In this document: in pieces, positions 13,258 to 60,800 of the stretch | Numbering within the stretch: position 1 is the first letter of the stretch | Layout: each line of letters begins with the position of its first letter | Assembly: GCA_037903355.1 (NCBI GenBank) | Contig: JBAJFE010000004.1 | Span: 1,488,001-1,552,000 of the forward strand | Direction of reading: 5' to 3' | DNA: 64,000 nucleotides | Source of the DNA: Trichuris trichiura | Lineage: Eukaryota; Nematoda; Enoplea; Trichinellida; Trichuridae | Notes under the pieces: model-generated | Databases searched by the model: none | What the model was told of the DNA's origin: nothing | What the model saw: only the letters and a program-made list of their open reading frames with translations | Program-made: the position numbers and the translations under genes

Positions 13258-13548
13258 GCTGCGTAGTTGTTCGTTTGTTGTTGTCCGTGATGCTTGTGCA
13301 CAATTAAACTATTTATCATTGCAAACATTTAACTGCTTTTTAAAAAAAGTCCAACATTGTTTTTATTTATAATTTTGCCTGAAGCAATTCATTCGGCGGG
13401 AAATGTCTTTTCTATGCGTTTTTAGCCTTCCATTTTGTAGTTACGACAGTTCAAATGAGTGCTGTAGTAAATGAACGTGATTATCTTCATAGTGCAAAAG
13501 TTTTATTACGGAATTATTCCCGTTTAATATGTTAAATAACTCCGGAGC

Positions 13549-13576
13549 TTTCGGGTCGACCGAGACCCGTCTTCAG
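13549..13576 (-). ncRNA. Hammerhead-ribozyme-like core (left arm)
   Basis: Reading the minus strand gives CTGAAGA, C, GGGTC, a 6-nt loop, GACCC, GAAA. That is the conserved hammerhead order with a 5-bp stem II. GAAA is followed by the self-complementary GCTCCGGAGT, a possible short stem III. Stem I and the cleavage site were not proven. Confidence 0.6.
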
Positions 13577-13591
13577 CGGTTGTGAGTTCCG

Positions 13592-13619
13592 CTGAAAAGG
13601 GGTCTCGGTCGACCCGAAA
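13592..13619 (+). ncRNA. Hammerhead-ribozyme-like core (right arm, mutated)
   Basis: This is the inverted partner of the core at 13549-13576. It reads CTGAAAA, GGGGTC, loop, GACCC, GAAA. The second G of CTGANGA is changed to A, so this copy is probably inactive. Confidence 0.5.
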
Positions 13620-13728
13620 GCTCCGGAGTTATTTAACACATTAAACGGGAATAATTCCGTAATAAAACTTTTGCACTATGAAAACATACGCTCCCGTACC
13701 AAGAAACCACATTTTCGTGATTATCTTC

Positions 13729-15692
13729 TATTTTTAAACTTTTAAAAGTCCCCGCGGAATCGGCAGAACGATAGCATCGTTTTGGACTGCATTTAAGGCA
13801 GTTTTTTCCCATCTTAAGGCATTGTGCAAATTTCAGTTTTTAGAGATATTCATCAGAGCGCCTTATTGGCGATGGAACAATATAAATTATTTCTTAACTA
13901 TTAAACTCCAACAATTCAAAAAATTGTTCGTTGGTTGTGGGATACTGCATGACAGTTTAGTTGTACAAAAGTTGGAGCATCAATCTTTTCTACATTGGTA
14001 AAGAACTGTTCGAACAGAACAATACGTTCATTGCTTTATTGCTTTTTAAGAACTGTTCTTGGAGATGTCAAAGAGTCGTAAAACGTTTTTTGGGTTATGG
14101 AACGACATGGTCAAATAGAATAAACGGAATGCGATGGGATAAAAACGCATATTTTACGTTAGAACTACCGTAAGCTTTCCCGCTTCAAGAAAGCAAGTTC
14201 TCCTAATGTTTCAGACTTGGATGCATTGAAAAACCGCATTTTTCTAGGTGCGGTTTTCTCTTGATGGCTTAAAAGCTTACGATTGCTATAAAAAAGTGAG
14301 AAATTACCGGCTTTTCTTATTCTGCGCAGCCCTGAGAACAGTGTAGGTATGTTCGCGTATGCCCCACAACTCAAGCAGAAATTTTGAATTCTACTTTTGC
14401 TGGAATACATTTTCAAAATACTGCGTTCAGCTGTGAGGAGATAACACTTCGCAATGGCTTTCAGATGTTCAATGCTTTTTATTCAAGTGAAAATATCGGG
14501 ACAAACAATAATAGGCAATTAAAAAAGATTTGCGTTTCATAAACAATTTTACTGCCGTTTTTGGGCCTAAATGCTATGGCAACACGATTTAAAGTCGGCC
14601 ATTGCACACGAACTAAATTTTAGCTCATTGAAAATAGAAAGTTAATTTTTATAGAAATGTCTGTTAAACAAACTTTCTCTTTCTATAGCTATTGCGCATT
14701 TTGCTATTTTAAGCAGCAAATTAGCAAGGTTTTTACGTTTGGTAAGCAATTTCCTTGTTTAAATAGATGATTTTCAGGTACACTCATTTTTACGCTAGTT
14801 AGCACGACCCTTCTTGAGGTTTCAGCTCCCGCAAATTATTTTTTCTATTTCTTGGTCATTTATTATCAATTTTTGTCCAAGCTTTGCGACCAAGTCAGCA
14901 TAAATTATCGAATATTTTTGTTCGAAATTTTTCCGAAACTTACCTAGCAGCGCTAAATGTTCGAGCAAGTAACTTTGAGGAAAGCAAAAATCTTGTTCGA
15001 ATTTTACCACTCAATAATAAGTAATTACTATTCAACGGCCGAATGCAACTTTTGCATAATAATTTGTTTTGAACAATTCTTACAAAATTTAGCCCCCGTT
15101 TAATAACTGCAGCAAAGAAAACGCAAATTAAATTTGGAGCGCTTTTGGAGCGTTGTTTGTTTTCCGTTTACTATATTAAATAATAAACGCACTTTTAGAA
15201 CTGAATATGATAAGTTTTAAAAGATGCTACTTTTTTATTTTCTGGCAAAAGTTATAGCAGACCGCCTAACTCGTTGTCCATTTGTGTTTTACGCTTTTGG
15301 CCAGATTGAAAACATGGACGGAACGCATATGCTTAAGGATTTCACCGAACTTGCCCACTTCGTATGTATTGCTACAGTGTGTTCATTATCTATTCAATAG
15401 TTTTTTTTTGACAAGTCAGTATCTTTTGAATTTTCGTAGTTTTTGAAGCATACGAGGTTAGGACGTAAAATCATAGTTGTAATATTGCAGAAGCTTTGCA
15501 TTTTCGACTCGCGGTCTTTTTGGCATTCAACTTTTTAAAATAAACTCACAGTACGATTGAAGACCGTTTTTTCGCGGGGATTGCTTGAATGTTTCATATT
15601 TCTGTAGAATCAGCCAACACCAAGTTCAGCTGCTTCTATTGACTATTCATGGTGTGTTGTTGATGGAAAGTTAGCGCGCTTGGAAGCGAATA
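13729..15692. other. Intergenic spacer between PI4KA and the SNF gene
   Basis: No supported exon. A short perfect hairpin (AAAACCGCA ... TGCGGTTTT) lies near 14231-14261; it has no family I recognise. The rest is AT-rich and is presumed to include the promoter of the transporter gene. Confidence 0.45.
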
Positions 15693-19683: not shown

Positions 19684-20439
19684 TAGGACGACAACTTGCC
19701 CTTGAAGGCAAGCCAGTCTCAGCTGTTCTCCTTTTGCCTTTGCGGCGTCTCGCAATAGATGTTTATTTGTTTTAATAGCTTAGGGAGAGACTTAAGTGAT
19801 TGTTTCCGACGAACAAGCTGCCTCATCATTTAATCATTTACTGTAGCGAAATTCAAGAGTGATACTTGAAAAGTTGTGCTGTCAGTTGTCTGTACTTTAA
19901 ATTTGCATACTTTGTTAAGACAATCATTTAAGGCGAGACCCGATGCCTCGGAGAGTGCATCTGGACAAAGCCTCCTGCGAACTTTTCTTGTTTTCAATGT
20001 TGCTTATCGAATTTGCATAATGGCTCAATTGCACTAAAGCTCAGTGAGATCTTTTGGTGGCATTATTCCGCGTCTACTTTAGTCCAGTGACAGTTTTATC
20101 AGTTGTTCAGCACAGTCACGAAAAAAATTTGAATTGAGTCTGTCTTGCGCTGGTGGCGGCGCTTCGCTACTAGAGAGGAAAAGTTGAAATTTGTTTAGAC
20201 CGGAGAGTCGCTTTCACTCAGAGCAATTTAAAAGATTTAAATTTGAGGATTTTGGCAGTTTCACAAGTTTTGACATGTTTAAAATTGTTTCGCAGCAGTC
20301 GTTTTAAATAGACGCGTTTAAACTTGGGTTCGCCAAGTTTTCCGCAGTTGGCGGTCCAACGTAAGCGGACGTATTATGCACGGTGGCATTGGCCGTACGA
20401 CTAAATCTGACAACCGGTCAGAAGTACCGTACGAACGAA
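19684..20439. other. Intergenic spacer, no gene seen
   Basis: This is 3' flank of the transporter and 5' flank of the kinase. The in-frame GTG-initiated extension upstream of 20440 has no ATG and was not taken as coding. Confidence 0.45.
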
Positions 20440-21668: not shown

Positions 21669-21969
21669 CGAATTCGCTTGAACACAGATGTCGGTAACGA
21701 ACTATTTTGTTGTTTTTTTAAAAATTGATCGAATTAAGACTCAGCGACCGCTAATGCGAAGAGCTATACTACGACACAGTGACTATTGGTTTGCTTAGCG
21801 AAAGCTTTATTATAGGCCATAGTTTTGAAATTGTTGATTAAACTTCGTGCAAAACATTGACGCTCACTTATCTCTTCTTTCGCTGACGTAGAATGTAAAT
21901 TTCTTTCGAGCGGAATTGTTGTGCTAAGAATAATTTACATATGACTGTTACGCCTCGGCTGTACGAGGG

Positions 21970-23633
21970 AAAAGATGTGACGCTGAATTTTTGCATAACA
22001 ATCCTTTCTGTACTTTCAAAAATCAGTAATTTATGCAAAACATGTTATCGCCTATAGGACGCATTTTACCTTGAATTGAGGTGACGTCACCAGCACAAAG
22101 CTAATAAAGACGCAGAGATTTTGTTTTTTAAAACCACTGACGCTAACGTGACTTTTCAAATCTTATCAGTTCCTTGACGCCGTCGTATATCCGTGACGAT
22201 GACGTCAAGGAGCTGATAAGAATTGGAAGCGGGCAAAGATGTGACGATGAATTTTTGCGTAACAATTGCTTCTGTACTTTCAAAAATCAATAATTTATGC
22301 AAAACATTGTATTGCCTATAGGATGCATTTTTCCTTGAATCTTAGTGGCGTCACCAGCACAAAACTAATAAAGACGCAGAGAATTTGCTTTTTAAAACTA
22401 CTGACGCTAACGTGACTTTTCAAATCTTATCAGTTCCTTGACGCCGTCGTATATCCGTGACGATGACGTCAAGGAGCTGATAAGAATTGGAAACGGGCAA
22501 AGACGTGACGATGAATTTTTGCGTAACAATCGTTTCTGTATTTTAAAAATTAATAATTTATGCAAAACATGCTATCGCCTTTAGGACGCATTTTACCTTA
22601 AATAATGGTGGCGTCACCAGCACAAAGTTAATAAAGACGAAGAGATTTTACTTTTTAAAATCACTGACGCTAACGTGACTCTTCTAATCTTATCAGCGTC
22701 TTGACGCCATCGTATATCCGTAACGATAAGAATTGGAATTGAGCAAAGACATGACGCTGAATTTTATCATAACAATCGTTTCTGTACTTTAAAAAATAAA
22801 TAATTTATGCAAAACATGCTATTGCCTATAGGACGCATTTTACCTTAAATAGTAGTGGCGTCACCGGCACAAAGTTAAAGAGGAAGACATTTTACTTTTT
22901 AAAACCACTGACGCTAACGTGACTCTTCCATCCTTATCATCTCTTTGACGCCAAGGAGCCGATAAGAATTGGAAGTGGGTAAAAAGATATGACGTTGAAT
23001 TTTTGCATAACAATCGTTTCTCTACTTTCAAAAATCAATAATTTATGCAAAACACGTTATCGTCTACAGGACGCATTTTAGCTTGAGTTGTAGTGACGTC
23101 ACCAGCACAAAGTTAATAAATACGTTGAGCTTTTACTTTTTAAAACGACCGAGGCTAACGTGACTCTTCCATCCTTATCAGCTCCCTGACACCAAGGAGC
23201 CGATAAGAATTGGAAGTGGGTAAAAAGATATGACGTTGAATTTTTGCATAACAATCGTCTCTGTACTTTATAAAATCAATAATTTATGCAAATCATGCTA
23301 TCGCCTACAGGAAACACTTTACCTTGAATAGTGGTGGCGTCACCAGCACAAAGTTAATAAAGACGAAGAGATTTTACTTTTTAAAACCACTGACGCTATC
23401 GTGACTCTTCCATCCTTATCAGCTTCTTGACGCCAAGGAGCCGATAAGAATTGGAAGTGGGCAAAGATATGACACTGAATTTTTGCATAACAGTCGTTTC
23501 TGTACTTTAAAAATCAATAATTTATGCAAAACATGTTATCGCCTATAGGAAGCATTTTACCTTGCATAGTGGTGGCGTCACCAGCACAAAGTTAATAAAG
23601 ACGAAGAGATTTTACTTTTTAAAACCACCGACG
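21970..23633. repeat. Tandem array whose units carry the 3' end of arginine kinase
   Basis: GTCACC..CACAAA anchors recur at 22085, 22350, 22613, 22860, 23098, 23339 and 23577, giving spacings of 265, 263, 247, 238, 241 and 238 bp. Each unit includes, on the minus strand, a copy of the last 12-16 codons and stop of the adjacent arginine kinase, e.g. [18 protein letters not shown] at about 22400-22450 and GVKEMIRMEESR-stop at about 22910-22950. Each unit from about 22160 to 23460, except the third (near 22700), also has an inverted partial copy (GTCAAGGAGCTGATAAG or AAGGAGCCGATAAG) that can form a hairpin. The right-most unit is the real 3' end of the gene. Units near the gene match it better than distal ones. 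Confidence 0.85.
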
Positions 23634-25402
23634 CTAACGTGACTCTTCCATCCTTATCAGCTCTTTGACACCGTCGTACATTTGTTTCACTGCCTCGAAC
23701 TCTGTTATGCCCATTCGTTTCTTATTGCTAATATCAAAAATACCGGCTTCGCTCTTTGAGTGTTCACCGTGAATGCCTCGAGCTTGCAAATTCAAATCTT
23801 CGCAAATATTCTGCAACATACTTGGCTGAATTGTATGCAAAAAAAATGTTAGGCGGTATATTGATCGCCCACCTGAAAGTCGCTTCGCTGACTGACTTTT
23901 GGCAACTTGATGTGCACGGAAGCGCGTATTGTGGTGCCCAAGTTGGTGGGACAGAACGTAACAAAACCCAGCCGATCATCCCTAGTAAATGCCATCTTGT
24001 CTTCCAACGCCTGCGCAAAGGGATTTGCAGATGATAAACAAAGCCGTCAGCTTACCTTTACGCCATTTTTAAGGCGCTTAAGGACCGCGCTGACGTCACC
24101 ACCATTTTGCATGCTGATTATGCGTACGTGATCTTCCTCATTTACCCAAATCAAAAAGGTCTTTTCCTTATTGTGGAAAATGCCGCGTCCAATAGGCCAA
24201 TAGTTGCAAGCTTTGGCAGCCTGAAAAGCGACCGAATAAAAAGTATACCCGAAGCCGAAGAGTAGTTGTCTATAAAAGCACCTGAAGAAATCTATCGCCC
24301 TCTTTAAAAAGAAAATGTTCATTGATTAGTCTGCTCTTGTCTTGTTCATTCATTCCTCTCAATGGATAGTATGTTCCTTGCAATTCGGGATCGGCGAAAG
24401 AACGTACGGCATTTTTCACCTTCTCTTCCAATACTATGTAATCGTCTTCTCTGAGCAACGGGTTGAATGGAAAACCCTAAAGCAAACGAGTCTGCGTAAG
24501 CGTAAAGAAAAATGAATGGTAGCAAAGCGCACCTTAACTGTACGAGCGCAGCGAATTCGAGTGGAAATGATATATTTGCCTTCCGGGTCCAAGTTGGTCA
24601 GTTCATTCAGTCTTTGTTCGCCAAAGTCCTCGTCAGGTTGTTTGTCATTACGTTTAAAGCCGTGATAGTCTTCAATAATTGGATCGAACAATTCCCTGAA
24701 AGTTGTGTACGCTTGCGGGTCGGGAGCGTACGCTCCAACGCTGCTGTCCAAATTGACAACTCCTAAATACGGCCATTCATGCAAGTATACTTAGACGTAC
24801 TATTCCACCTGATTGGATGACGTCTAGTAAAGTGCCGCCCATTCTTGTTTTTCTCGATTTCAATTTGTCAAGCATTTGTTTCGTTAAATACTTCTTGACG
24901 AGGGAACTACAGTTGTTGGCATTGTTTATAGCAAAAAATGCTTCTTCGCAACGATAGCGCACGTCGAAAGGGACCGTTTGAATGTTGAACATATTTCTGT
25001 ACAATTCAGCTGTCTGAAATTTACATATGCCTGTACACACACTCCAGTTTGATTACTTGAGAGCAGAATTAAAATATTAAACAATATTTACGACAAGAGC
25101 GAAAGACTTGGAGCTTAAACGCAACTTAAATGCACAAACTGTGCACGACATACTTGCAAACTTGAATGTTAACACCGAACTCACTTACTGCTGAACCGTA
25201 AAACCATGTTAACACGAAATCGAAACCATCTGAGTGTTAGGATGGCCGAGTTATTTCAAAATAGATTTGAACTAGCGGCGGTTTTAAACTTTGAAAACCA
25301 ACTTACCTGTTTAAAGATCATACTTCCGACACCGAAAACTACGGCACCACCGGTACCCAACGCAAGAAGCTTTCCCCATATTGGCATACGACGATACGCC
25401 AT
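23634..25402 (-). CDS. Arginine kinase with N-terminal hydrophobic anchor, 398 aa
   Basis: Seven exons on the minus strand join in frame: 25402-25307, 25013-24809, 24762-24533, 24476-24282, 24220-24056, 24010-23897 and 23825-23634. The product makes phosphoarginine from ATP and arginine as an energy buffer. Seen are the N-domain [15 protein letters not shown] and [77 protein letters not shown], the active-site Cys in [12 protein letters not shown] and [14 protein letters not shown]. Exon 1 is extra: 32 residues with a basic start (MAYRRMP) and a hydrophobic [19 protein letters not shown] stretch, suggesting a mitochondrial or membrane-anchored isoform. The downstream array duplicates the end of this gene. 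Confidence 0.93.
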
Positions 25403-32736: not shown

Positions 32737-35700
32737 ATGACATCAAGCGGAAAAATGCCGCCAGAAGAAGAAGAAGAAGCTGATTGGTCTTTAATTCACA
32801 GCAGCTTTAAAGTGTTTCTCCTCTTATTCGTCCTGCTCGTTTTCCTTCTATGCGGAGGCTGCCTTTTCCAACATCTCGAGCAGGAAGTCACTTTGGAACA
32901 TTTCTACGCTACCAATGTGGAACATGAAAAGCAAAAGGCCGATCTTTTAAAAGTGAGTTCTTTACAAGTTTATAACTTAGTGATCAGCTAATCTCTGTGT
33001 CTGTCTGCCTTTGTTGCTCGAATGTAAACAATTCAATTGTCTTTCGTCTTGTCTAACTTCATCTTCTCTCGCGGTTGTTTGCCTCATCTTACTTAGCTGA
33101 GTGCGTAAGATGACGTACAGATAATTGTGCAACTATTGAAATTTCCATAAAAAAAAGTTTATTTATAGGACAAAATAAGCTACAAGGAATCGCTGATATT
33201 GACACTTGCTTAAGTCTGCATAAGGCTAAGCTGAATGTTCTTGAAATTGTGTTTTAAGGAATGCATAAGGAATGGCTTTTTTTGGCATACACTTTTTCGT
33301 CTTTAAGGATACTCTATATGAGATACTCTGTCCGTGTTCTACCACGTTTCATAATGATATCTTGCGGATATATTGCTTAATGAGCAGTTCCCTCTTATTT
33401 TATCAGTACAGAACCGTGTAGTTCCAAATAGGGCGCCACTTTTTTCCTGCTACCATATATAAATCATTACATTTTTTGGCTTCTTTTTGTACGGATTTTC
33501 TATGTCCCGTTGAAAAAAACTTTTATTAATAAACTGTCCGTAGCTTTGGGGTGCGAACTTGACCCGTCATCAGCGGTCTAAGGATTGACGTATGAATAAA
33601 GTGCACTAGTAACGTGCAAGGTGTATAGCTGTTTAAAGGCCAGTGTTTTAAAGTGGGCCTTGTAGTTCTTTTCTCTTTGTCTGTCAGCAGTTCGAGCGGG
33701 TGTATCCGATTTTAGTTGAGCGAGCAACAATTCGAGCGGGTTACAATATTCGTCCATATTTTTTCATGATGAAGAAATTTATTACGGATGTGTCCCGTTT
33801 GTATTCTATATAAAGAGGCTCCGGAGCTTTCGGGTCATTCGAGACCCATCATCAGCGGTCTGAAGTGCAAATATGAATTGTGCCAGCGAGTGCCATCTAT
33901 TGATTCTGTGGATTTTAAAGCGGGTATTTTAAAGCCTTCTGTTTGTAGGTTTTTGTATTTGAGTCTGTCAGCGCACTTCTTTTTTTCTTCTTTTTTTCTT
34001 TTTCTTTTTCTTTCTTTGTCCCATTTATATTGCAGTTTTGTCCATTTCTATTTGTTCTAATTATTTGTTTTTTCTTTTTTCCCGGCTATTGTATTTCATC
34101 TGGTGAGTGTGCAACAATTATACCGCGTCACAATATTTGTCCAAATCCCACTTATGTCCACTCCTTGATCGCGGTTGTAAGTCGTATTGTGTCTGATATA
34201 TAGTGCTTCTTTAATTCTTCTTAACCGTAAATTGTTTTCGTAACATAAACCTTTTGGGTGGAGTGCTTGAGTGCATTGCGTCGCATGCTCCACTACAGCA
34301 GAGGCTTGTTTGGCTTTTTCCATTGTAAGTTTTGGGTCCACGATTGGTCTTCCTCGCTGTGTGGTTAGATTGGTACCATTGTTAAGTATGGCTTTCGCGT
34401 TATTGTAACTTGTGAGCTTTTTTATGTGTTCGTTAAATCTATGCTCTAGGGTGTTTCCCGTTTCACCAATATAAATCCCTGAGCAAGAACATTCAACCGC
34501 GTATATTAATCCTGTCTTTTTGTTTTCGGGGATTTTAGTTTTGTCTTTGCGAAGGATTGCCCTGAGGTTGGGCGAACTATTGAAAAAGACTCTGAAGCCT
34601 AATCTTTTTCCTAATTGGACAATCTTTTCGCCTAAACCTGCCACATAAGGAATAACCAGACAAGTGTCGTGCGGACTGTTTTGCTTTGGAGACTCGCGTG
34701 TGCGAAGCCTGTGGTTGAACACTTGGTTGATAAAGGATTTAGGATAACCGTTTTTGTAGAAGATTTTTCTAATGTAGTTAATTTCTGGTTGGAGATATTC
34801 AGGACTGCATAAATTGAATGCTCTGTCTATCATTCCGGAGAGGATACCACGCATCACTGATCGTGGGTGATGTGATGAAAAATTGAGGTACTGATCTGTG
34901 TGCGTGGGTTTTCTATACACTCTGGTTTTAAGGCCTTCGCTTGAGCGAATAATTAAGGCGTCCAGAAAGGGCAAAGTTTTGTTATCTTCTTTTTCCATTG
35001 TGAAGACTATTTGGTTAAGACGGACGTTGTTGAGGAATTGTAAAAATTGTTCATCTTTTCCAGCTTTTATAATGACAAAGATGTCGTCTACGTATCTTTT
35101 AAAAAGGCGTGGAGCTATGTGTCCGTCTATAGTTCTGAACATTTGTCTTTCAAAGTTTTCCATAAAAATTTCTGCTAATACAGGGGATAAGGGGCTTCCC
35201 ATAGGTACTCCGTTAGATTGTTTATAGAACTTGTTATCAAAAGTGAAGTAATTGCCTTCTTGCATGCAAAACGAAACCAGCTTGACAATGTGAAAGGGAT
35301 TTAATTTAGTTCTGCTGGGTAGATTTGTGTCCGTGTGGAGGAGATTGTGTAAGGTCTCTAGGGTGTCTGATATTGGGATGCTGGGAAATAAGTCTTTTAC
35401 ATCATAGCTGACTAAAATCTCGTCGGGTTCCAAACAATAGTTTCTTATTTCGTTGACTTGCGTTTTGCTGTTTTTGTCAAAGGATGGTTCCTTGCCTGTT
35501 AGAGGTTTGATGATCTTACTTAAGTATCTACTGAGTTCAGTGGTGATGCTGTTAATTGTGGAGACTATCGGTCTCAGCGGGATATCTGGTTTGTGTACTT
35601 TTGGGAGACCATAGAGGTCGGGGGGTCTGAAGTTCGATGCAAACTTAAGATATGTTGTCGTTTTGGTGATAGCAGGTTCTTTGGTTTCTGTGGCATATGT

Positions 35701-38700
35701 AATGAGAAGAGATCAGAGATTTTTTCGGGAAACTTCTGTTGTGTCCGTTGGTAGGGGTTATAATTGCTGGTGTTCAAGATAGCTGTCATCTTTTCAATGT
35801 AGGTGCTTCTGTCAAGTAAGACGATTCTGTTCCCTTTATCTGCTTTGGTTATAATTCTGTTGGGTTGCTTCCTAAGTTGATATAAGCTGTTTATCTCATA
35901 TCGGCTTAGGTTCGAAGTGGCAATGAAGTGGTGGCCTAGGATCAATGTAGATAAATTGCTCTTGATTTGTGTGGCTTTTTGTGTGTCCGACGAAGATAGG
36001 CTGTCTTCAACTGAGGCAATGATGTCGAGAAGTGGTGGTTGTTTTGGTGTTGGGACGAAATTAAGTCCTTTTTCAAATATATGCTTCTCATTTTCACTTA
36101 GAGGGAAAGAGCTGAGATTTATTATCGCTGAGTTTAGCTTTGACCTAGGAGTTCTTTGTGGAATATTTCTGTAAGGGTTTGAAGATGTTGTCGGAATATT
36201 GTCTCGAATGCTATCAAATTTCGATTTTAGTACCTGTTTTTGTGATGAGCAAACGGTTCGTGTGGCAAGGTCCACATGTTTCACCAGGTTCTCGTAAAGT
36301 GTTCTGTGTAGTCTGCTTCTGAGGAACGCTAATGTGCTACTATAATCTTCTCGCAGTCTCGATAGTGTGTATCTGTGTCTCTGTATAACATTTCGTAGTA
36401 CAGACATTCCAGCCGAAAATAGGATTCTTTTTGATTGACTATCCATGTACTGTCCCCATTTTAACCGGGAGCACTTTGGTAGGATTTCTTGATTTCTGCA
36501 TTTCAGTAGGAAAGTTAGTTGACCTTGTGTAAGACCCGCTTTGATACGTATATGTTCCAAATGTCTTGCAGCTGACAGAAGGGGTGTTCCGTATTCGTCC
36601 ATATTTCATTTATTTCCGCTCCTTTATTTCGGTTGCAGGTTGTGTTGTTTCTAATATACAGAGCTTCCTTAATTTTTCGTAAGTGTGCATTCTTTTCATA
36701 ACATAAAACTTTTGCGCCAACGCTTAGATTGCAATGTGATGCGTGTTCCACAACAGCCGAGGCTAGTATTGCCTTCTCCATGGTGATCCTCCTTGGGTCT
36801 GATATTGGTCTTCCACGTTGTCTTGTGTAGTTGTTGCCGTTGCTGAGAATGTTTTTAGCGTTGTTATAAGTGGTTAACCCCTTTATGTGTTCATTGAATC
36901 TGTGTTCGAGGGTGTTGCCCGTTTCCCCAATGTACATTCCTGAACAGGGACATTCGATTGCGTAGACTAATCTTGTCCTTTTGTTTTCTGGGATTTTCGT
37001 TTTGTCCTTCCGGAGAATTGTCCTGAGGTTGAGGAAGTCTTTGAAAAAGACTCGGAACCCTAACCGTTTTCCTAACTGGACAATCATTTCTCCTAGTCCT
37101 GCCGCATAGGGGATAACTAAGCGTATATCAGGCAAATTTCTTAGTTGCCGTGATTCCTGGTTGCGCAGCTTTTGCTTGAATACTTGGCCAATAAAAGATT
37201 TCGGGTAGTCATTTTTGTAGAATGTTTTTCTAATGTAGTTGAATTCCGATCGAAGAAATTCTGGATCACATAAATTGATTGCTCTGTTAATCATTCCCGA
37301 GAGGATTCCGCGCATTACTGAGCGTGGATGATGCGATGAGAAATTAAGATATTGGTCAGTGTGTGTTGGTTTTCTGTAAACTCTGGTTTTTAGTCCTTGA
37401 TTAGTGGGAATAATCAGTGTGTCAAGGAAGGGGAGGGTTCGATTTGATTCTTTCTCCGTTGTAAAAACGATTTGATTGAGGCATACGCCGTTGAGGAATT
37501 CTAGAAACTGTTCTTCCTTTCCATCTTTGATAATTACGAAGATGTCATCTACGTATCTTTTGAATAGTCGTGGGGCTATTTGCCTATCAACCGTTTTCAT
37601 CATTTGCCTTTCAAAACTCTCCATGAATATTTCGGCCAGGATAGGAGATAGTGGGTTGCCCATAGGGACACCGTTAGATTGTTTGTAGAACTTATTATCA
37701 AACATGAAGTGATTGCTTTCTTGCATACAGAATGATACCGACTTGACAATGTGGAAAGGATTTAACGTGGTTCTGGTGAACAAATTTGTGTCTGTATTGA
37801 GGAGATTGTATAGTGTATCGAGAGTTTTTGAAATCGGAATGCTAGGGAATAAATCTTTAACATCGTAGCTAACTATGATTTCGTCCGGTTCTAGATGGTA
37901 TTCTCGTATTTCGTTGATGAAGGTGTTACTATTTTTGACGAAGGACGGTTCTTTATCAGTTAGTGGTTTGATCACCTTTTTCAAATATCGACTGAGCTTA
38001 CTTGTGGTGCTGTTAATTGTGGAAACTATTGGTCTTAGTGGGACCTCTGGTTTGTGCGCTTTAGGTAGGCCATAGAGCTGAGGGGGTCTGTAATTTGATG
38101 TGAACCTAAGATGCTTCGCTATCTTGATGATTTCTGGTTCCTTGGTTTCTGTGCCGTATGTGATGAGAAGGGAACGAAGATTCTTCCGTGGCAATTCTGT
38201 AGGGTCATTGGGCAAAGGTGTATAACTGTCGATGTTCAAGATAGTTATCATTTTTTCGTTGTAATAATAATTCTAACGGAAGACGGAGCCCGAAGGTCTG
38301 CCTAGGTCATGTTCCCGCCAAAAAGGAGCGTTTGCCCCTCATTCTTTCGGCCGTTGCGAACAACATTTCCTGCTAGTCTAAAATCAGCGGCGTTGCATTT
38401 TATAGTTCGCCTAAATATTTTTTGGATAAGCTAAATGCGGTTTTTAGGCAGTATGGAACCTAAGACTGGTAAACCGTAAACAAGAGCCTGTTAGCCAATT
38501 GCGTTTGCACTGGCGATAGCCTGATTAATAGCTTTTTTGCTAACTTTGAGGCATCGCCCTGTGCCCGTCAATCTTCCATGTTGATATTTAATAAAGATTC
38601 TAATGTAATTGCTTTCCTAAAGCGTACTTGGCGAGTTGCTTATTATGTTGACGGTGGAGCTGCTCTTTTTGAATTTTGTATGACGTCAACAAGCCAGATG

Positions 38701-42296: not shown

Positions 42297-44608
42297 TGTT
42301 TAATTTTCCGCAGCCAGTCAATAATAGCTCCTTTAGATTCAATCATCTTCGGGTGATGATTCACGAATTCAACAAGAGTATCCACAATGCTAATAGAAGA
42401 AGACAATTTAAGCTCATTCATTCAAGGCGAGACGACCAGAATGGGAGAAAACTTGCATCGGAAGCAGTTTCGAATATCATTCAATTAGTTCCGTCAATAG
42501 AGCGACCAACACGCTGGCTGATTCTCACTCATTGAAATATAATATCAAGAAAGTTAAGCGTATTGAACCATCAACGAAGCTGACGCGCTATTGCGATAAG
42601 CTGAATGAACGCAATTCCGTTTCTCTTCAATTCTGCGCAAATGATTACAATCTCTTTTTACGTCTTCGGTTTATTTGAATGACTTGCTTTCGGAGCATTA
42701 AAACTAACAATAAGTCTGTCTGCGGAAGGATTTAAAAAATTTCAACAGCTGACGACGTCATGTCGCATTAAGCATAAGAGGTCAACCAGAATGTTAGAAA
42801 TAAAATTAATATTAACATTAATATATGTCATTTTCGTAACATTTGTGCAAACTAAACAAAAAACTGCTTATTAAAGTTTTCTAAAAACAAAGCTTTAAGT
42901 CGATGCGTATATTTCATCCTTCAAATGGTAATGTCATGAGCACGACAGCAATTGCTGCATTGGGATCACGACTGTTGCATAACTGATAATATTAGCTAAC
43001 AAGTTCCCAGCCTTATATGGGTTCTATTCATCCTAAAAAAGTGCAGTTTGCATTCAGAAGCAACAACAAAGAAACATAAGCGGTGCCCTTGCTACAGTGT
43101 ATATTCTCCAATTTCTGTTGCCTATATGGCGGGTAGCAGTACATTCTGTTATAACGCAGTCGCTTACGCATAAAAGCACATTTCAAAGATGTTTATCAGT
43201 TTCCATATTTTTGTTCCTAATATTTTCATACATTAAAAAGGTTATGTATACCGCCGTTATGAATTTGAATGAAAATATATAAATCTCTTATATATAATAT
43301 AGCATAGAATGAAAAAGGGCTTTAGTTGTGCCTATATCTTATTTATACGTTGCTGATATTGAGTCAGTGCAAATATTGCAATCGCTTTGACGCTAAGACG
43401 TACGCTTACGGGACCAAGCCAGTAAGTCGCAGCTTGCCGTAACCTTAAACTGCCAACCGTATTTTGCAGCTTGTTGTTTTTTGATCCCGCGAATCCTGAA
43501 AAAAGTCTTTCTCATCAACTGACTCGGTATTGTTCTTTAAGATTCGAGTTGAAAGTTAGCAAAAAACCTTGTGACTTTTCTGACTGATTGCAGATCATTA
43601 TTCACCCGCCAGAAGCTCTGTTCGTTGCGATTAAAACGTTGCAGATGTGCATATCAACAGGCTGAAAAAATGACTGATATCAGTTACTTCGGCCGGCGTA
43701 ATCTTGAGCTAGTTTTTATCGCTCAGTGGGAAGCATTTATCCTTAACTTGAATGGTTATGCAACAATGTTAAAGTGGTCACATCCGCATTTGTTGACTTA
43801 AAGTTTTACTTTAAATTGTTCCCCTCCTCTGCGCGTCCATTATTCAAGCAGTTGTCTGCGTAATGATTACGTTTTTGCTTTTAAGGAAAAAAGAGGCGGA
43901 AGTTGGCGAAGCAGAGCGTGAGTACAGTGATCAAAAGCGTAATCAGCTTCAACGAAAATTACTTCCTGGGCGTGGATGCATAAATGAGGCGCACATGAAA
44001 AATGGAAAACGCTTCGCTGCATCGGCTGTATTTCAATGCCAGCCAAAAATCGTCGGAAAAGAAATAATTTGACGTATATCGCTGAATCGCTTCTCTGCTG
44101 AGGTCAATATCGCCAATCTTCTGTTTTATGTAACGTGAATCCACAAAACTACCCAACATAAAAATTCAACATTTTATTTTACGCAATCCTATCAAGATTG
44201 AGCGAAAAACAATTAACTATTCCACTGAACTGCCTATGCACGATTCTTTCTTCTTACTACGTATTTTAAAAGTCTCTGCCAAATCCATAATACATTAACG
44301 ACGTATGTAACATGCAGACGCATTTACAATAAGAGCGTAAGCCTTCATTCAGAAGTGTGAGTTTTTCTGTCCGTTGTGTCATGTATGTTTCTATGAATGA
44401 AAGTATCCGAAAGGACTAAGGCTTTAACTAAACAGGGCGCCTAATAACAATGTATGTTAACGCAGAGTACTAACTGGACAGATTACTCTTCCTTTGTTTT
44501 TTATTTTTCTTAACAGGTTTTTAAAATTGCTTCTTTAAAACTTTTTTTCACAGAATTTCCAACTCGTTTTTCAATTAACGTTTATCGTGTAAACGGTAAT
44601 TACGGAGC
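42297..44608. other. Intergenic, no supported gene
   Basis: Open frames at 42296-42535, 43571-43801 and 43863-44072 lack motifs and convincing splice partners. I cannot exclude a small, rapidly evolving gene. Confidence 0.35.
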
Positions 44609-44637
44609 TTTCGGGTCTCCTCATGATCCGTCATCAG
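44609..44637 (-). ncRNA. Solo hammerhead-like core
   Basis: The minus strand reads CTGATGA, C, GGATC, loop, GACCC, GAAA, GCTCCG. Both boxes are intact; stem II has a mismatch. It lies away from any PLE coding sequence, so it is a solo terminal-repeat remnant. Confidence 0.55.
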
Positions 44638-44872
44638 CGCAGGTTGTGCCGCCCGTCAGGCTTTTTAAATTCAATTTTTTAAAGGAAAAAATTATTCTTC
44701 TTATGCAAATCTAGAAGAGCGCGTTAATCTTCTGCTTTTCCTGTCCTTATCCTCATTAGCTCGCTTGATTCAGATAAAGTTTTTTGAACGAACTATCATT
44801 GACTGTAGTTGATAACTCGTTGACAGAAGTGTACGTGGATTTTTTGGTCGAAGTTCGAAGTTGCCATGAAAA

Positions 44873-44979: not shown

Positions 44980-45783
44980 GAAAAGAGAGAAAAACCAGAC
45001 TTGGACAAACATATGAAGGTATGCAGGTAGCCTATGATGACGTCATCTGTTCGTTAAGCTGCCCTCGCCCTCCTTCGGTTAATCTCCCTAACATTGGCAA
45101 ACTAAACCTACTTTTACAAGACGATTCGCCAGATTCCGACTGACTATCCCATTTTGCGTTGTGCCCCCACCGAAGACGGCTTCCAATGCAGTTGCTCCGA
45201 AGCTGATCCAACCATTTATGTACAGCCTCGGCAGTTCAAGGTTAGGGGTTGAAAAGGCGTAGGAGCTCCTCCTAAGGCTAACAACTACTTGCGCTGACGA
45301 CGGCTTGAAAGTGAGCCGAACGTTTCGACAGACTTTTGTTTTGGTTTCTCGCCTTGAACGAGATTCAAAAGTTTTTTTTACTTATTTGACTCATCTTCAA
45401 GGCAGCATAGGGCAGGAAAAAATCCATGTACACTTCTTCGAACAATCGACTCTTTACAAGCTTTTTGTTTTACGTATAACGCGTTGAGAAGATAAAGGTT
45501 ATCTTTAGCGGTAAAGTCTTGAACACTTCCAAATGTAGCTTGTCTGATGGTGACGACATTTTGTATTGGAAGAAATTGATTAAATTTTTTGGTCAATTAA
45601 GTTTGATTCAGTTTGCTTCCGTTGAGAAATAATACCAGCTGTCATAACCTAATGCATTCGCGTAAGGGCGTAAGCAGAAGTTCATTGCACTTGTTATTTA
45701 ATTGATGTAAGATGGATACAGTTCCTGTTGGATTTCTTCCCCCGCATCCCAACGATGGACATCTGACTATAACAACCCGGTTA

Positions 45784-45841
45784 GCCAATCAGCTATTAAG
45801 ACAAACTGCAGAGGCGTGGCGTGGTTTCCTCTTCTATAAAA
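45784..45841 (+). promoter_or_regulatory. CCAAT and TATA boxes upstream of the neuropeptide gene
   Basis: GCCAATCA at 45784 and TCTATAAAA ending at 45841 lie about 50 bp apart, and about 120 bp before the ATG at 45962. The order and spacing suit a core promoter. Confidence 0.45.
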
Positions 45842-45961
45842 CAGGATGATATACTGCAACAGCTTGAAGTGGGCGACTGACCACCGATGGCGTGATTATT
45901 GGCTTAGCTTAATTCATTTCACAAACTAGCTTGATAAAGTCTCCTTTCAGGGTTCCGGACT

Positions 45962-50904: not shown

Positions 50905-53900
50905 ATGAAGACCAAAGAAATACGGTTGCATGTTGATGGAATGAACTGTCATTCTTGTGGTTTCGCTGTTCAGGCTTCGTTGAAGAAACTGAAGGGTGTT
51001 CGGGATGTACTAGTCAACATCCTGGAGCAGTCGGTCATTGTAGAATGTGACATGGGCAGTCAAAGCGCTTCGTCATTGATTAATGCTGTACAAGAAATTG
51101 GCTTTCTTGCTCAACTTGTCGAAACGAAAACAGAGCATGGAACCGATGCTGACGATTTGGAAACATGCAAGCTTTCCGTTTACGGAATGACTTGCCAATC
51201 TTGCGAAGCTCACCTGGAAAAGACGATAACTTCCCGGTTTCCAGTCACCTACGCCAAATTTGATGCGTCATCACAATCGGGTGTCATACAATATCCAAAA
51301 GAAAAATGTAATCCGCAAGAAATTGCAAAAGCTATAACGGACATGGGCTTTGACGCTTTCGTACTACACAAAGGTATTTGTTTGCGGATTTTTCAAAAAT
51401 ATGTAATATTCGTATCCAGTAGCTACCTGTAATGCACTGCCAGCTTTTAAGCATATTCAAACTTAGTTTTTCATGCTCGTAGATGATTATTTGCCATTGC
51501 GTATCTTAAAGCACGTATTCCACAGCTTTCTAAGTTTTCAGACTCCTCTTAGGCACCTGTGTAGTATCCTTGTTTATTTCTCTGAGGTGACGAGTTAAGG
51601 ACTTCAATGTTACAACTCGTATTAATGTACGTATTTTTGTCAGCCTCCGCCTCATTATTTAGTACGATCCATTTTCTCGAGACATGTAATGTTTATCCCA
51701 TTAATTTCCGATGAAATTTTTGTCAGGGAATATTATTTAACGGAAGCTGTGAAACTAGGAACAGAATTATAAATTTACTGTTTTTATTTCTACTTTAGCA
51801 TATTTAAAATGTCACAAATTCTTTAACTCTCTGTTAAACTTGCAATTTTCAGAACCAGTTTCCTTCAATCTATATTTACACGGTGTTTTCTGTCTCAGTT
51901 TACGGTGTAGCTAGTTATTCTGATTGAAATTTTATTCTCCCTTTTCCATTTCGCATTGATACTATGCTTAAGAGTACGTTATTTATAAGTTTTTAAAATT
52001 TGCCTTTAAAGTTTCGTATTTCTCGTTATTGTTTTGTTCGTTTTCCAGCATACCTTTTCTCACAGCTAACTGTAATGAGCCTGTTCAGTGCGTCAACACT
52101 TAAAGTTGCTTCACTTAGTTATGATGAATTTTTTTCTATATTCGGCTGAGCGTCAAAGGCAATTTTAAAGCAACAGGATCCAAATCTATTATGTTATACT
52201 GTGTAATGTTGATGTAATATCTTTCATTTGGCCTTTGATAATTGAAATACGTTTGGAGATCCAAAACTCTTTGTAATAACATGGCAAAATGCTTCAGTTT
52301 CGCGGGGCGTAATGAGTAAAACTTTTACGCCTACATTCAGTATTCATTAACTTTCATTCATCCTTATGCTCAATGAAATTTTCATGTGGAGGTCGCAGTG
52401 CTATGTAATCACTTGTTAATGTTCACGCGTGTGCTGAAAACTGCTTCCATCCCAAATGCTGCCGCCTTTTAAGCGATGATCCCTTTTTGTTTATCTTTAC
52501 ACAATTGATTTTTAAACGTAAACATCTATGAAGAAAGTTTTGTTAAAAGTAGTATCTCCGGCGGAGGATTCTTGTTACTTAATTATAATAAAATGGCCTA
52601 CCGTATTAGTATTAACAGCATTTACTACTATGTTTTGTTGGCGTAGAATTACGCTGCCTTTAATTCCTAGCCTACGCTTGTTGTTTTGCAGGACATTTTA
52701 TTGTTTATTTTATAAACATTTTCTATTTTGACCTAGGATCATTTTGCGTAAATATGCTACGTTAGATTTCGCAATTTTGGCTTTGCAGCACTTGGGATAT
52801 ATTACAGTAAAACCCCCGTAAGTTGACCATCCAACGGACCGGGGAAAACTGGTCAACATATAGGAAGTGAGTATAAGTGGCTCGGCTAACGTGCGGAAAA
52901 ATCAACTGGTCAAAATTCGGTCAACTTAGGGAGGTGGTCACCATATAGGAGTGGTCAACTTCAGGGGTTTTACTGTAGATATATTATAATCAGGGAAGCA
53001 ATCCATTGTTCACTTAGAATTGGTTAACCAACGAAAGTTTTTAGGACGCATCTCCCGCCTTCGGTACCTATGCTGGTTTAAATCCGCGCAAAACTTCGCA
53101 GGTTTCAACGCGTCTAAACTATTTCCAAAGAATGCGCTAAATCAACCTCGTTTATTCTTTGAAAACATAGCTTCTTGGTACGTGACAAAGGAACTTCATG
53201 TAGGATATATAATTTTACAGTTACGGAAGAATCCCGTTATAAAAGATGGAAGAATTTGGGCGACGCCTTCACCCATCTTCAGCGGGTAGGGAAAGGGTAA
53301 TAACAGAAGTGACATTGAACATACTGTCGGATAGTTCAGTTTTAAGGTGCGCTGGGGTGGTTCTGCAGTGCGACTTAAGTGAAAATTGCTTAGAAATTGT
53401 GATGGAGTTTCCTGTCAACATACGTAGTCTTGTATACGTATGTCATATATCCTGTTGTATACTGATCGATTCATCCATATCCATCTGTGCCTATAAGCAT
53501 ATTTTACCGTTAAGTGGGAGTTATATTTGTTTATTTACTGACAAGAGCTGTTCCGTTGGCAGGATCTCGTCCGTGAATAAACAAATAAAATTTCTACTTA
53601 ATCATAAGACATGTTTATAAATGCTGATGAATGTCCATGAATCGGTCAGTATAAAATACAACATATGACATATGTATACAAGACTACATCTGTTGACCTC
53701 GAACTCCATCGCAATTTCTATTTAAATTATGCTAATGAACCACCCTGGCGCACTTTGAAACCGTTAGTACGTTCGATGTCACTTTTGTCCGCTGAAGACA
53801 GGCGAAGGCGTCACCAAAAGGGTTCGGTGCACAAATTTGTTGGATGTTGTAACGCGACTCTTCCGTTACAATAAAAATCGTATGTTTTACATGGACTGTC

Positions 53901-56900: not shown

Positions 56901-57754
56901 CGACGTTTTGCAACCTTCTTTCAAGCTTAAACGTTCGCTGAGCAACAGGCGCGCTTACGTTTTATTAATGGCTTTTACTTTCCGCTAGTAATCGCTTGGC
57001 TTTGTTGTGTTGTAGTTTCGCGTATGCCAATTGGATCGGATCGATTGGTTTTATTTTTTCCAGGGAAAAACATCGGAAGTATTGGCCAAGTTGGTGTCCT
57101 TACAAGCGAAGAACGCCATTATAGTCGAGTTGGGTTCGCGGAACGAAGTTTTGTCCGAAACGAGCATAGATCTTGAACTAGTGCAAAGAGGAGACGTGTT
57201 GAAGGTTGCGCTTGCGCCTGTAGCTATTGTTAAGTCGTATTTTGTTTCAAATGATTTTAGGTCGTTCCCGGAGCGAAAATTCCCGTAGATGGACGAGTTA
57301 TTTTTGGCACCTCATCCGTTGACGAAAGCTTCATAACTGGCGAACCTTTGCCGGTCAGCAAATCTCCAGGTGTAACATACGGTACTTTGCTCATGCGTCC
57401 AAAACAAGAGTTGTTATTTTGTTAGGTTGCGCAGTCATTGGTGGATCCATAAATTTACATGGTAACCTTCTGATCGAAGCTACGCATGTTGGTCCGGATA
57501 CTACTTTGTCTCAGATTGTTCGTCTTGTTGAGGAAGCGCAAACGTCGAAGGTTCGCTGGTTGCTTTTCTCTGTTGCTTTTTCGCTTTAATTATTCCGTAA
57601 TTTTCAGGCTCCAGTTCAACACTTGGCTGACCAAATATCTCGCCTCTTCGTTCCCGGCGTTATTATAGTTTCTATGCTAACATGGCTCGCATGGGTGATC
57701 ATCGGTTTCTTGGATGTTGAAAAGATTCGAAATTCTTTTGGGGTAAATCTTCTA

Positions 57755-57807
<53 letters not shown>

Positions 57808-60800
57808 GTATGCAGCGTATGAAACTAGGCATTCTATAGAATACCCAGAATTTGTAGAGAATGTATGGAACGTTAAACTGTTTCTTTTTTGGAATGTATG
57901 TCCCGTTAAAAACTTTTAATTCTCCAGAGCTTTTGGGTCAATCTTGGCCCGTCCTCAGCGGTATTAAGTTAATGTAATGAGTAAGTGCGACGTTGATGTA
58001 CAATCTGTTTTAATAGTCTAAAGGCGAGTGTTTTAAAGTCGAGTTTCTGGAGTTTTCTCTGTCTGTCAGCTGAACTCTGGAAACTCGACTTTAAAACATT
58101 CTCCTTTAAACCGTTAAAACAGATTGTATGTCATCCTCGCACTTACTGATTACATTAATTTAATACCGCTAAAGACGGGTCACGATTGACCTGAAAGCTC
58201 CGGAGAATTAAAAGTTTTTTGGCCGGGACATACATTCCGTAAAAGAAACATTTTAACATGAAAATCTACAGTCTCGTACCAAGAAGTTGCATTTTCAAGA
58301 ATGTATGGAAGGCGTAATATTTTGCGCATTTCGTAGGCGTTATACACAATGCCTAATGACAAACCGGCAAAGTATTAAATCGATTTTTAATTCTTCTTTT
58401 TCTTCTTTCTTTTTCCTCTCTCGTTGCTAACGGGTGCGTTATTCAGAATAAAATTTTTTCAGAAAGCTCCGCGGGTTAACGTTTAGAAATAAACGTTTTT
58501 TAACGAACGGGTTGCAAAGCCGCAAAAAAATTATATTCTAAATCGATTTTTCTCCTATATTCTCCTGCGGGCCCACGGTGGCGCCACCTACAGGACAAAG
58601 TGGGTTGTTTTTTCGCTACTTTTCTGGTTATACTTTCCTTAAACCTTGGCTTAGGCTTAGGCTAAGGCTAAGGTGGAACATGATAGTCGATAATGATGCG
58701 AGAAACTTTGGATATTTTGATCGTAGAACCTTTCCGGCTATCGTGTTCTGTCCTAGCCTAAGGCTGTGCCAACATATAAGGACAGCGTAACGAGAAACAG
58801 CACATATTTCTTCACAGGTGTCGCCACTGTACCTTTGCGAGGGCGTCAGCGATAAGACCTTAAAAGTTTGCGCTGCCGAGATGCGATTCACAATTTCCCT
58901 AAATATTATTATTAGCATATTAAAATAACACTGAGAGTTGATACTTTTCCTAACATGTTAACCTGTATATATATATATATATATATACATGCATGTAGAG
59001 GCGTATATCTGATTGCGTTTTGTATTACCAGGGTCATTGTATGTTTCTGGAGCCTATCCATGTCAATCATACGATGCATCATGATCACAAGGATCATTTA
59101 ACGACGGCCGACATTGAGCTGATTTTCAAATTCGCTTTTGACTGCGCAATTACAGTTCTTGCGATAGCTTGTCCATGTTCTTTGGGATTGGCAACGCCCA
59201 CTGCTGTTATGGTAGCAACAGGTGTTGGGGCTATGAATGGCATCCTTATTAAAGGCGGCGAACCTTTGGAACTCGCCCAGCGGGTAGATGGCATTGTTGT
59301 TGTAATGAATTTCTTGCTGACCTATTTCCCTTTGATTTTGTCGAATAGATAACGACCATTATCTTCGACAAAACGGGTACAATTACGGAAGGAAAACCAC
59401 AGCTAGTGAAATTGTGCTTGTTTATTGCCGACTCGGTATTGCCATTGAACAAAGTGCTGGCGATCATGGGAACAGCCGAGTCAAAATCCGAACATCCCAT
59501 CGGCATTTCAATTGTAAAATTTGTCCAAAGCGTAAGCCGCATTTTCCGCTAGGTTAATCTTTTTAAAAATGATTGTTTCTTCATTCAGAAGCTCGGTACG
59601 GAACGGCTTGGTGCTTGCAAGCTGTTTCAAGCGTCTCCCGGTCACGGTATTAGGGCGGTCGTTTCCGAGGTCGACTCAATGCTCGCCAATGCCCGTAGTG
59701 ACGATGAGACAAAATTGTCAAATATGGGCGTGGAAATTGTTTACAGCAATTCCCAGTTGCATCAGCCGAATGTCAAGCTCACAAAGCGGACCGAAAATGG
59801 TCTGATACTTACATTAATGTTAATTCCGATTGATTTGACGTCATTGCATGCAGGAGACGCGTCCGATTACGAAGTACTCGTCGGCAACCGGAAATGGTTG
59901 GAAAGCCATGGAGTGAATGTATATCCCGACGTTGATGCCATCATGTCCGCCGAAGAGCACATGGGCAGAATAAGCGTTCTTGCAGTGATTGACGGTTCGG
60001 TTTTGTTTCTTTTTGTATCGTTGCTTCAACGTCTCAAAGCAAAGCGTTTTTAGGCAGCGTGGCAGCCTTATTCTCCATTGCCGATTTGGTGAAAACCGAG
60101 TCGGCATTGGCCGTCTATAGCCTAAACAGGATGGGCATAAAAACAATTTTGCTGACAGGTGACAGCTCTAGGACTGCTTTGGCCACTGCAAAGCAGGTAT
60201 TTTTTTAAAATCTTATTTGACATTTTGAATTTTACTAAGCTCGTTACATTATAGGTCGGAATCAAAACAGTATTCGCGGAAGTGTTACCAAATCATAAGA
60301 AAGCAAAGGTGGAGCAACTGCAGAAAAATCGTGAAATTGTAAGTTCGAATAATCCCCTTTATCAATGTTTCATCCAGAGTTTCTTCACTTATGCGCAGCC
60401 CATCGTAGTATTGTTAATTAGCCGAAAAAGATCGATTCTATATATTTAAATTATAATTCCTATTATCATAATTTATTTCTATTTCTCTAAGCTTTATTTC
60501 TAATTATTCTAAATTATATTTCCCATCACAAAATTACGTAGGCGGTCTTACAAGTTGTTTATTCATATTTAATCTTTTCCATTTCATTGCGATGTCCTTG
60601 TTAGTTATGGGCCCAAAGGTGTACTGTAAGTTTGCCGGTCATCATGCTCTGGCGTTACCTAAGCCTAAGCTTAAATATATGGGTAATTTTTTAGCTTAGG
60701 CTTAGGTAACGTCAGAACAGGATAGCCAGCTTGCTCTTCAGTAAGGGAAGAACAGGAAGAGAGCATGCTTGCCAGAAATGAACCTGCATTCCGCAGCGAG

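What the first reader, a model, noticed from the sequence alone, without database searches (positions are those of the whole stretch)
13476..58310. A family of hammerhead-ribozyme-like cores linked to Penelope elements
At least eight places share the order CTGANGA, about 5-bp GGGTC/GACCC stem-loop, GAAA: minus 13549, plus 13592, minus 33543, minus 33828, minus 44609, minus 53255, minus 57931 and plus 58169. The cleanest are 13549, 33828 and 44609. PLEs are known to carry hammerhead motifs in their terminal repeats. Here the link is direct: two cores lie just 3' of the PLE coding block. A single extra base between CTGANGA and stem II recurs in several copies, which may define a lineage-specific variant.
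Basis: partly seen in the sequence, partly recalled or inferred. Interest (0 to 1): 0.8.

Follow-up and report, generated by a model that had tools for sequence, protein, structure and literature searches.

The report
Minimal hammerhead ribozymes in Penelope elements
The repeated motif is a small, probably RNA-cutting sequence (a minimal hammerhead ribozyme) carried by Penelope-type jumping genes of a whipworm-like animal; that pairing is already known in other animals, but here it occurs in thousands of copies, nearly always with one extra base in the catalytic core.

Summary
All eight motifs are in the window, plus a ninth, decayed one. Three keep every core base: 13549, 33828 and 44609. They read as minimal type I hammerheads: 3-bp stem I (CCG/CGG), 5-bp stem II, palindromic AGCU as stem III, cleavage at CUC|CGG. 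Genome-wide, 2564 matches within 3 mismatches against 0 for a reversed control. The extra base is near-universal: 1154 pyrimidine, 13 purine, 1 none. Stem II shows compensatory change; stem I does not. Rfam finds nothing, but it also misses well-formed extra-pyrimidine hammerheads in viral contigs. The motif lies in the Penelope pseudo-LTR, after the RT/GIY-YIG ORF and 62-74 nt before the next ORF's conserved start. Close neighbours are mostly head-to-head palindromic insertions; two in the window have 13-bp target-site duplications. In 21 of 36 palindromes both arms contain the uncut cleavage site; in 9 others similarity stops near it. Hammerheads in Penelope elements and inverted pLTRs are known; new are the lineage, the copy number and the near-fixed extra pyrimidine. 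Self-cleavage is untested.

The parts
13476..13488 (.). left 13-bp target-site duplication CGTGATTATCTTC
13489..13715 (.). complete palindromic Penelope-derived insertion (227 bp): inverted pLTR with short end, then pLTR with long tail; no coding block
   Evidence: inverted repeat; ends and TSD; no PLE protein match here
13542..13579 (-). hammerhead core, all core bases intact
13589..13626 (+). hammerhead core, broken (G8 to A)
13716..13728 (.). right copy of the 13-bp target-site duplication
33490..33761 (-). 5'-truncated partial tandem Penelope unit: last codons of the ORF, 3'UTR, pLTR; the nine best other copies in the genome are 98-99% identical
33538..33576 (-). hammerhead core, broken (G12 to C)
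33821..33858 (-). hammerhead core, intact, 246 nt 3' of the Penelope ORF match
34105..36593 (-). Penelope coding block, copy 2 (RT and GIY-YIG endonuclease; frame-broken)
   Evidence: Pfam RVT_1 and GIY-YIG; tblastn
36593..38263 (-). Penelope coding block, copy 1, 5'-truncated (RT)
44602..44640 (-). hammerhead core, core bases intact; 3' stem I strand altered, consistent with a deletion between two TCCG repeats
   Evidence: deletion is an inference from the sequence
53246..53285 (-). decayed hammerhead core (G12 to C and others), followed by a recognisable ORF start
53391..53720 (.). 77% inverted repeat: inner arms of an old palindromic element between the 53255 core and its plus-strand partner; no TSD found
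53789..53821 (+). ninth, decayed core, inverted partner of 53255
57858..57870 (.). left 13-bp target-site duplication AGAATGTATGGAA
57871..58297 (.). palindromic Penelope-derived insertion (427 bp), 147-bp arms 86% complementary
57924..57961 (-). hammerhead core, broken (G12 to A)
58166..58203 (+). hammerhead core, broken (G5 to A)
58298..58310 (.). right copy of the 13-bp target-site duplication

Best explanation
The motif is a minimal type I hammerhead ribozyme in the pseudo-LTR (pLTR) of a Penelope-like retroelement family that is very abundant in a whipworm-like nematode genome. In the transcript, CCG pairs with CGG (stem I) and GGGUC with GACCC (stem II). The self-complementary AGCU right after GAA can give a real stem III only when two copies pair (4 shared bp), so cleavage at CUC|CGG most likely needs a dimer, as reported for other Penelope hammerheads. 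One pyrimidine sits between A9 and stem II in about 99% of exact copies. Shown: sequence, copy number, stem II compensation, position in the pLTR, palindromic insertions with target-site duplications. Inferred: stems I and III, dimer use, cleavage itself, and a role in trimming multimeric transcripts. In 21 of 36 palindromic insertions both arms extend past the intact cleavage site, so the RNAs copied there had not been cut at that site; for the others this is open.
For: Invariant and nearly invariant columns of 43 aligned copies fall on the core and stem II (37 of the 43 were chosen by the core pattern, 6 are window copies); the core is found in loci chosen by the ORF-start motif and not by the core, in 22 of 30 at least in part; 2564 copies against 0 control; extra base 1154 Y / 13 R / 1 none; stem II pair 4: U-A 1154, C-G 126, U-G 16, C-A 16, while independence predicts 0.2 C-G; the MFE of 13549 and of 33828 contains CCG/CGG and stem II; same-strand Penelope ORF match beside a core in 9 of 30 loci chosen by core alone; eleven viral-contig hammerheads with three good stems carry the same extra pyrimidine (the search pattern required one base there); precedent for Penelope hammerheads, and for dimeric cleavage, in passages of PMC6155905, PMC7761336, PMC7229834, PMC11167929 and PMC6466107.
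Against: No Rfam hammerhead match at gathering or at E 10. Folding energies are not unusual: z -0.9 for 13549, -1.2 for 33828, -0.1 for 44609; the MFE of 44609 is not a hammerhead; in the MFE of 13549 and 33828 the extra base pairs with G12 and G5 pairs with a C, either of which would block the core. A distal stem I fails the swap test (p 0.66), and stem I pair 2 shows no compensation (0 double against 20 and 31 single changes). Stem II covariation rests on few founder subfamilies. No cleavage data.
Confidence: 0.8

Rival explanations
1. The motif descends from a hammerhead but no longer cleaves in this lineage; the inserted pyrimidine pairs with G12, making a 6-bp stem II, and the sequence is kept only by recent common descent.
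For: In the MFE of 13549 and 33828 the extra base pairs with G12; stem I shows no compensation; only 3 of 9 window copies are intact; 21 of 36 palindromic insertions derive from RNA uncut at the site.
Against: Core bases and CUC|CGG persist across subfamilies whose linkers differ; stem II compensates; viral-contig hammerheads with well-formed stems carry the same extra base; an extra nucleotide in a viroid hammerhead core is reported (title seen, paper not read).
Confidence: 0.17
2. The pLTR element is kept as a structured RNA signal for binding by the Penelope protein or for starting reverse transcription, and cleavage is incidental.
For: It lies 62-74 nt from the conserved start of the next ORF, near the long and short insertion ends; many inserted templates were uncut; PMC11167929 suggests that cleavage was not needed for insertion in vitro (passages).
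Against: The conserved bases are those of the hammerhead catalytic core, including a cleavable H17; a mere binding signal would not need this set.
Confidence: 0.2
3. The palindromic units are unrelated DNA transposons (MITE-like) or microRNA hairpins that happen to contain the motif.
For: Inverted repeats with target-site duplications; sub-threshold Rfam microRNA matches on the hairpins.
Against: Both ends match the Penelope pLTR end or ORF start; one end is long and the other short in all 29 scored cases; some palindromes have their axis inside the Penelope ORF (L038, L042); the microRNA matches are below gathering and to several unrelated families.
Confidence: 0.03

Closest known systems
Minimal type I hammerheads in Penelope-like elements and Terminons (Cervera and De la Pena 2014; Lunse et al. 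2017: small variants that cleave as dimers)
   Same: pLTR position, diminished stem III, thousands of dispersed copies, Penelope linkage (as told in reviews)
   Different: Here a near-fixed extra pyrimidine after A9 and a palindromic AGCU stem III in a nematode lineage. Whether those papers already list such forms could not be checked: PMC4209133, PMC5785218 and PMC5850863 are not held
Anolis Poseidon PAc hammerhead (PMC11167929, passages read)
   Same: Hammerhead at the pLTR-ORF junction of a tandem GIY-YIG Penelope; unprocessed RNA is the main substrate
   Different: In PAc the ORF starts inside the hammerhead and the cut site is 26 bp after the start codon; here the core ends 62-74 nt before the conserved GTCCCGTAC of the ORF start
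Penelope families of the rotifer Adineta vaga (PMC3846280, passages read)
   Different: Low copy number there and the word hammerhead does not occur; here 34 of the first 100 exact cores on one contig sit in head-to-head pairs, and 29 of 36 scored pairs are short insertions without a coding block and with flanking repeats of 9-15 bp
Metazoan retrozymes (PMC7229834, passages read)
   Same: Non-autonomous repeats with type I hammerheads, tandem units of a few hundred bp
   Different: Retrozymes carry canonical hammerheads with tertiary contacts; these are minimal and embedded in Penelope pLTRs

Membership tests
Hammerhead ribozyme (type I) | Core C3UGANGA9 ... G12A13A14 with A15.1-U16.1 and H17 | tested here: met
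   Intact in 3 of 9 window copies; genome-wide 1168 cores exact but for the extra-base position
Hammerhead ribozyme (type I) | Stem II | tested here: met
   5 bp; U-A to C-G compensation 126 against 0.2 expected, few founders
Hammerhead ribozyme (type I) | Stem I flanking the cleavage site | tested here: inconclusive
   CCG/CGG conserved; no compensation at pair 2; distal extension not supported
Hammerhead ribozyme (type I) | Stem III | tested here: inconclusive
   Only one pair in a monomer; palindromic AGCU conserved, fits the dimer model; not tested by covariation
Hammerhead ribozyme (type I) | No insertion between A9 and stem II in the consensus | tested here: not met
   One extra pyrimidine in 1154 of 1168; the same in 11 of 24 viral-contig loci found with a pattern that required one base there. 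The consensus itself is recalled
Hammerhead ribozyme (type I) | Match to an Rfam hammerhead model | tested here: not met
   the models also miss the seven complete extra-base loci given to them
Hammerhead ribozyme (type I) | Self-cleavage | not testable with these tools
   Needs in vitro transcription
Penelope-like element | RT plus GIY-YIG endonuclease ORF | tested here: met
   Pfam RVT_1 E 9.5e-15 and GIY-YIG E 6e-5 in 34096-35712 minus
Penelope-like element | pLTR in direct, partial-tandem and inverted arrangement with a tail on one end and TSD | tested here: met
Non-LTR retrozyme | Canonical type I hammerhead with loop-loop contact in short tandem repeats | tested here: inconclusive
   Same-strand spacings of 475-619 bp in one subfamily, but the hammerhead is minimal; the units were not read

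The most novel reading that the evidence does not exclude
Hammerheads with one extra pyrimidine between A9 and stem II form a natural, active structural subclass, found independently in Penelope elements and in viral contigs and missed by present models. In this nematode lineage palindromic copies carry a ribozyme and its antisense in one transcript, so that foldback switches cleavage off and protects full-length RNA for insertion, while direct tandems cleave as dimers.
Probability: 0.15. Interest if true: 0.65.

Novelty: new member of a known kind. Interest (0 to 1): 0.38.

Why it matters
Penelope hammerheads are widespread, and a review calls their activity and role in these retrotransposons still a mystery (PMC7761336, passage). 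A genome with thousands of copies, many as palindromic insertions with target-site duplications, gives a record of which RNAs were actually inserted. The 21 palindromes with a short spacer and a located cleavage site all include the uncut site, which argues that cleavage did not make the template for those; a minority whose similarity stops near the site needs more data. The near-fixed extra pyrimidine gives a clear test of core tolerance, and shows that standard hammerhead models miss good candidates.

Tried and rejected
Rfam hammerhead match: none. Distal stem I: native pairing no better than swapped arms, -4.4 against -4.6 kcal/mol, p 0.66, 14 representatives of 33 arm pairs. Stem I compensation: 0 double, 20 and 31 single. 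A longer palindromic stem III through CTCCGGAG was considered and dropped because the bases after GGAG vary between subfamilies. Insertion 5' ends exactly at the cleavage site: not seen in the 21 palindromes with spacer of 24 or less and a located site; but in L063 (site not found) and in 8 of the 14 pairs with longer spacers (L021, L022, L055, L077, L079, L081, L083, L085) the shared arm stops within 11 nt of the site on at least one side, so this is weakened, not excluded. The sharp boundary at 33761 was first taken for an element end and dropped: the query is a chimera of two tandem units. GCG/CGU in 44609 as a compensatory change: dropped as a likely deletion product. The genome-contig scan with the CGTC form reported 100 stretches, gave 80 loci, and none passed the strict three-stem test; L135 looks complete by eye but has an internal loop in stem III. 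Paper searches for Trichuris with hammerhead (1 paper) or Penelope (31 papers, 20 listed) gave nothing relevant in the listings.
Full report
Observation. The eight motifs are all present. Read in sense they are ACCG-CTGANGA-Y-GGGTC-loop-GACCC-GAA-AGCT-C|CGG. Three copies (13549, 33828, 44609) keep all core bases; the other five each have at least one change at G5, G8 or G12, bases that the ribozyme is known to need (recalled). A ninth decayed core lies at 53789-53821 plus. A profile of 38 exact copies, 13549 and 33828 among them, recovers seven of the eight at E 1e-24 to 1e-8, missing 53255.

More than chance. The window lies in a 72.7-Mb assembly of 62 contigs. The 35-base core has 1291 forward and 1273 reverse matches within 3 mismatches, and none for the reversed-pattern control. 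The closest proteins to the window's Penelope RT are from Trichuris muris and T. suis (51% identity over the whole query for the best), so the host is a whipworm or a close relative (inference).

The extra base. Among cores exact elsewhere, 1154 have a pyrimidine between A9 and stem II, 13 a purine and one no extra base. It is a near-fixed feature of the lineage.

Structure. Stem II: at the fourth pair, U-A occurs 1154 times, C-G 126, U-G 16 and C-A 16; independence predicts 16 x 16 / 1154 = 0.2 C-G. The C-G copies form a few subfamilies, so the number of events is small. Stem I: CCG/CGG is conserved, but the compensatory pair U-A at its middle position is absent, with 20 and 31 single changes; about 0.5 would be expected, so this is uninformative rather than contrary. 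A longer stem I is not supported. Stem III is one pair in cis; the AGCU palindrome would give four shared pairs in a dimer. The minimum-energy fold of 13549 and 33828 contains stems I and II, but pairs the extra base with G12 and adds a lone pair at G5; that of 44609 is not a hammerhead; z-scores of the three are unremarkable.

Rfam. No hammerhead match in the window, in 33700-33960 alone, or in 20 of the 92 loci held from this genome. As a check on that silence, viral contigs were scanned with a core that requires one base after A9, with a GCTC or CGTC 3' side. Of 24 loci, 11 (7 distinct cores) form three perfect stems (I 4-5, II 5-7, III 4-10 bp) with H17 = C; the extra base is T in ten and C in one. 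Of 80 genome-contig loci none pass the same strict test, though L135 looks complete by eye. Thirteen of these 104 loci were given to Rfam at gathering and none was called a hammerhead; seven of the 13 are among the eleven complete ones. A stretch of L097 alone gave a weak out-of-register type II match at E 1.3.

Link to Penelope. The minus strand at 34105-38263 holds two RT blocks; 33828 lies 246 nt beyond the ORF match. 33543 belongs to a 5'-truncated partial tandem unit that begins within the last codons of the ORF, whose nine best other copies are 98-99% identical. In 9 of 30 loci picked by the core alone (some overlapping), a same-strand Penelope ORF end lies 5' of a core, or in one (L013) an ORF start lies just 3' of it. 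L013 and L014 overlap and join into one place: ORF matches run from about C1:807267 to 809717 between direct cores at 807150 and 810016, whose loops belong to different subfamilies. Thirty loci picked by the ORF-start motif, not by the core (the first 30 of 238, contig C1), put the core 62-74 nt before GTCCCGTAC in the 22 where it is recognisable at least in part; in 8 of 30 it was not found. There are 238 such ORF-start motifs genome-wide against 2564 cores.

Opposite-strand pairs. Among the first 100 of 1154 exact cores (contig C1), 18 neighbouring pairs lie within 300 bp; 17 are head-to-head (minus then plus) and one is plus-minus, against 0.7 expected by chance. In the loci held and the window, 36 distinct head-to-head pairs were scored. 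A shared flanking word of 9 or more bases was found in 30 of 36, against 6% of mismatched flanks; one of the 30 (L055) is the element's own terminus, leaving 29. In all 29 one end is long (42-56 nt past the TCCGTAATAAA anchor) and the other short (4-20 nt). Thirteen of the 29 lie in L063-L092, which were chosen by a motif in the long end, so their long end is not independent evidence; the other 16 were not chosen that way. The window holds two such insertions: 13489-13715 with TSD CGTGATTATCTTC and 57871-58297 with TSD AGAATGTATGGAA (not among the 36), and an old one around 53246-53821 without a TSD. This is the Penelope layout described for Adineta vaga: inverted pLTR, tail on one end, 8-10 bp TSD, head-to-head palindromes (PMC3846280, passages).

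Reading of the mechanism. One long and one short end in all 29 cases suggests an ordered process: first-strand synthesis from the long end, then foldback of the new strand near the hammerhead and copying back to the short end. Bilateral priming from both broken ends would predict like ends as often as unlike (inference). Of the 36 pairs, 22 have a central spacer of 24 or less; in 21 of these the cleavage site was located, and the arms reach 13-117 nt 5' past it in all 21, often near 50. The RNA copied there still contained the uncut site. Against a general rule: in the twenty-second (L063) the arms end about where the site would be, and in 8 of the 14 pairs with longer spacers (L021, L022, L055, L077, L079, L081, L083, L085) the shared arm stops within 11 nt of the site on at least one side. 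No such end lies exactly at the site, but the sample is small and the arm ends are approximate, so cut or broken templates are not excluded for these. The 21 agree with PMC11167929, where unprocessed RNA was the main substrate in vitro (passages). The ribozyme, if active, more likely trims multimeric or read-through transcripts, or competes with insertion (inference).

Known and new. Penelope hammerheads with diminished stem III, acting as dimers, are known (passages in PMC6155905, PMC7761336, PMC7229834, PMC6466107; the primary papers PMC4209133 and PMC5785218 were not held). An extra nucleotide in a viroid hammerhead core is known by title. Listings of searches joining Trichuris to hammerhead ribozymes or to Penelope showed nothing relevant (20 of 31 seen in the second), and no held paper has 'hammerhead', 'Penelope-like' and 'head-to-head' together. 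The finding is a new, very abundant member of a known kind, with a lineage-fixed core insertion.

Noticed in passing
L097 4418-4452, L098, L099, L101, L102, L104, L105, L106, L108, L112, L113 (viral contigs): Eleven viral-contig loci (7 distinct cores) hold complete three-stem hammerheads with one extra pyrimidine (T ten times, C once) between A9 and stem II; an Rfam gathering search on 7 of the 11 found no hammerhead. Whether they are already described was not checked.
   Followed up: partly
G000:C1:2085522, 2085997, 2086472; C11:2207837, 2208317; C1:7379217, 7379828: A GGGCC/GGCCC subfamily sits in direct repeats spaced about 475-611 bp, in one case behind an inverted copy: possibly short non-autonomous tandem units resembling retrozymes. 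Internal sequence not read.
   Followed up: no
13511-13656: Palindromic Penelope insertions score as microRNA precursors (MIR8670 E 3.5e-14, below its gathering score); such hits are probably artefacts of the palindrome.
   Followed up: partly
45291-45327 plus: Another CTGACGA, stem, GAACGTTTCG motif with a different 3' side; may be a decayed hammerhead of another family or chance.
   Followed up: no
21951-23714: Tandem array of about 238-264 bp units (6-7 copies).
   Followed up: no
768-1951: Tandem repeat of 375-bp units, at least three copies.
   Followed up: no
60634-60730: 45-bp inverted repeat with 7-bp loop, 82% complementary, of unknown origin.
   Followed up: no
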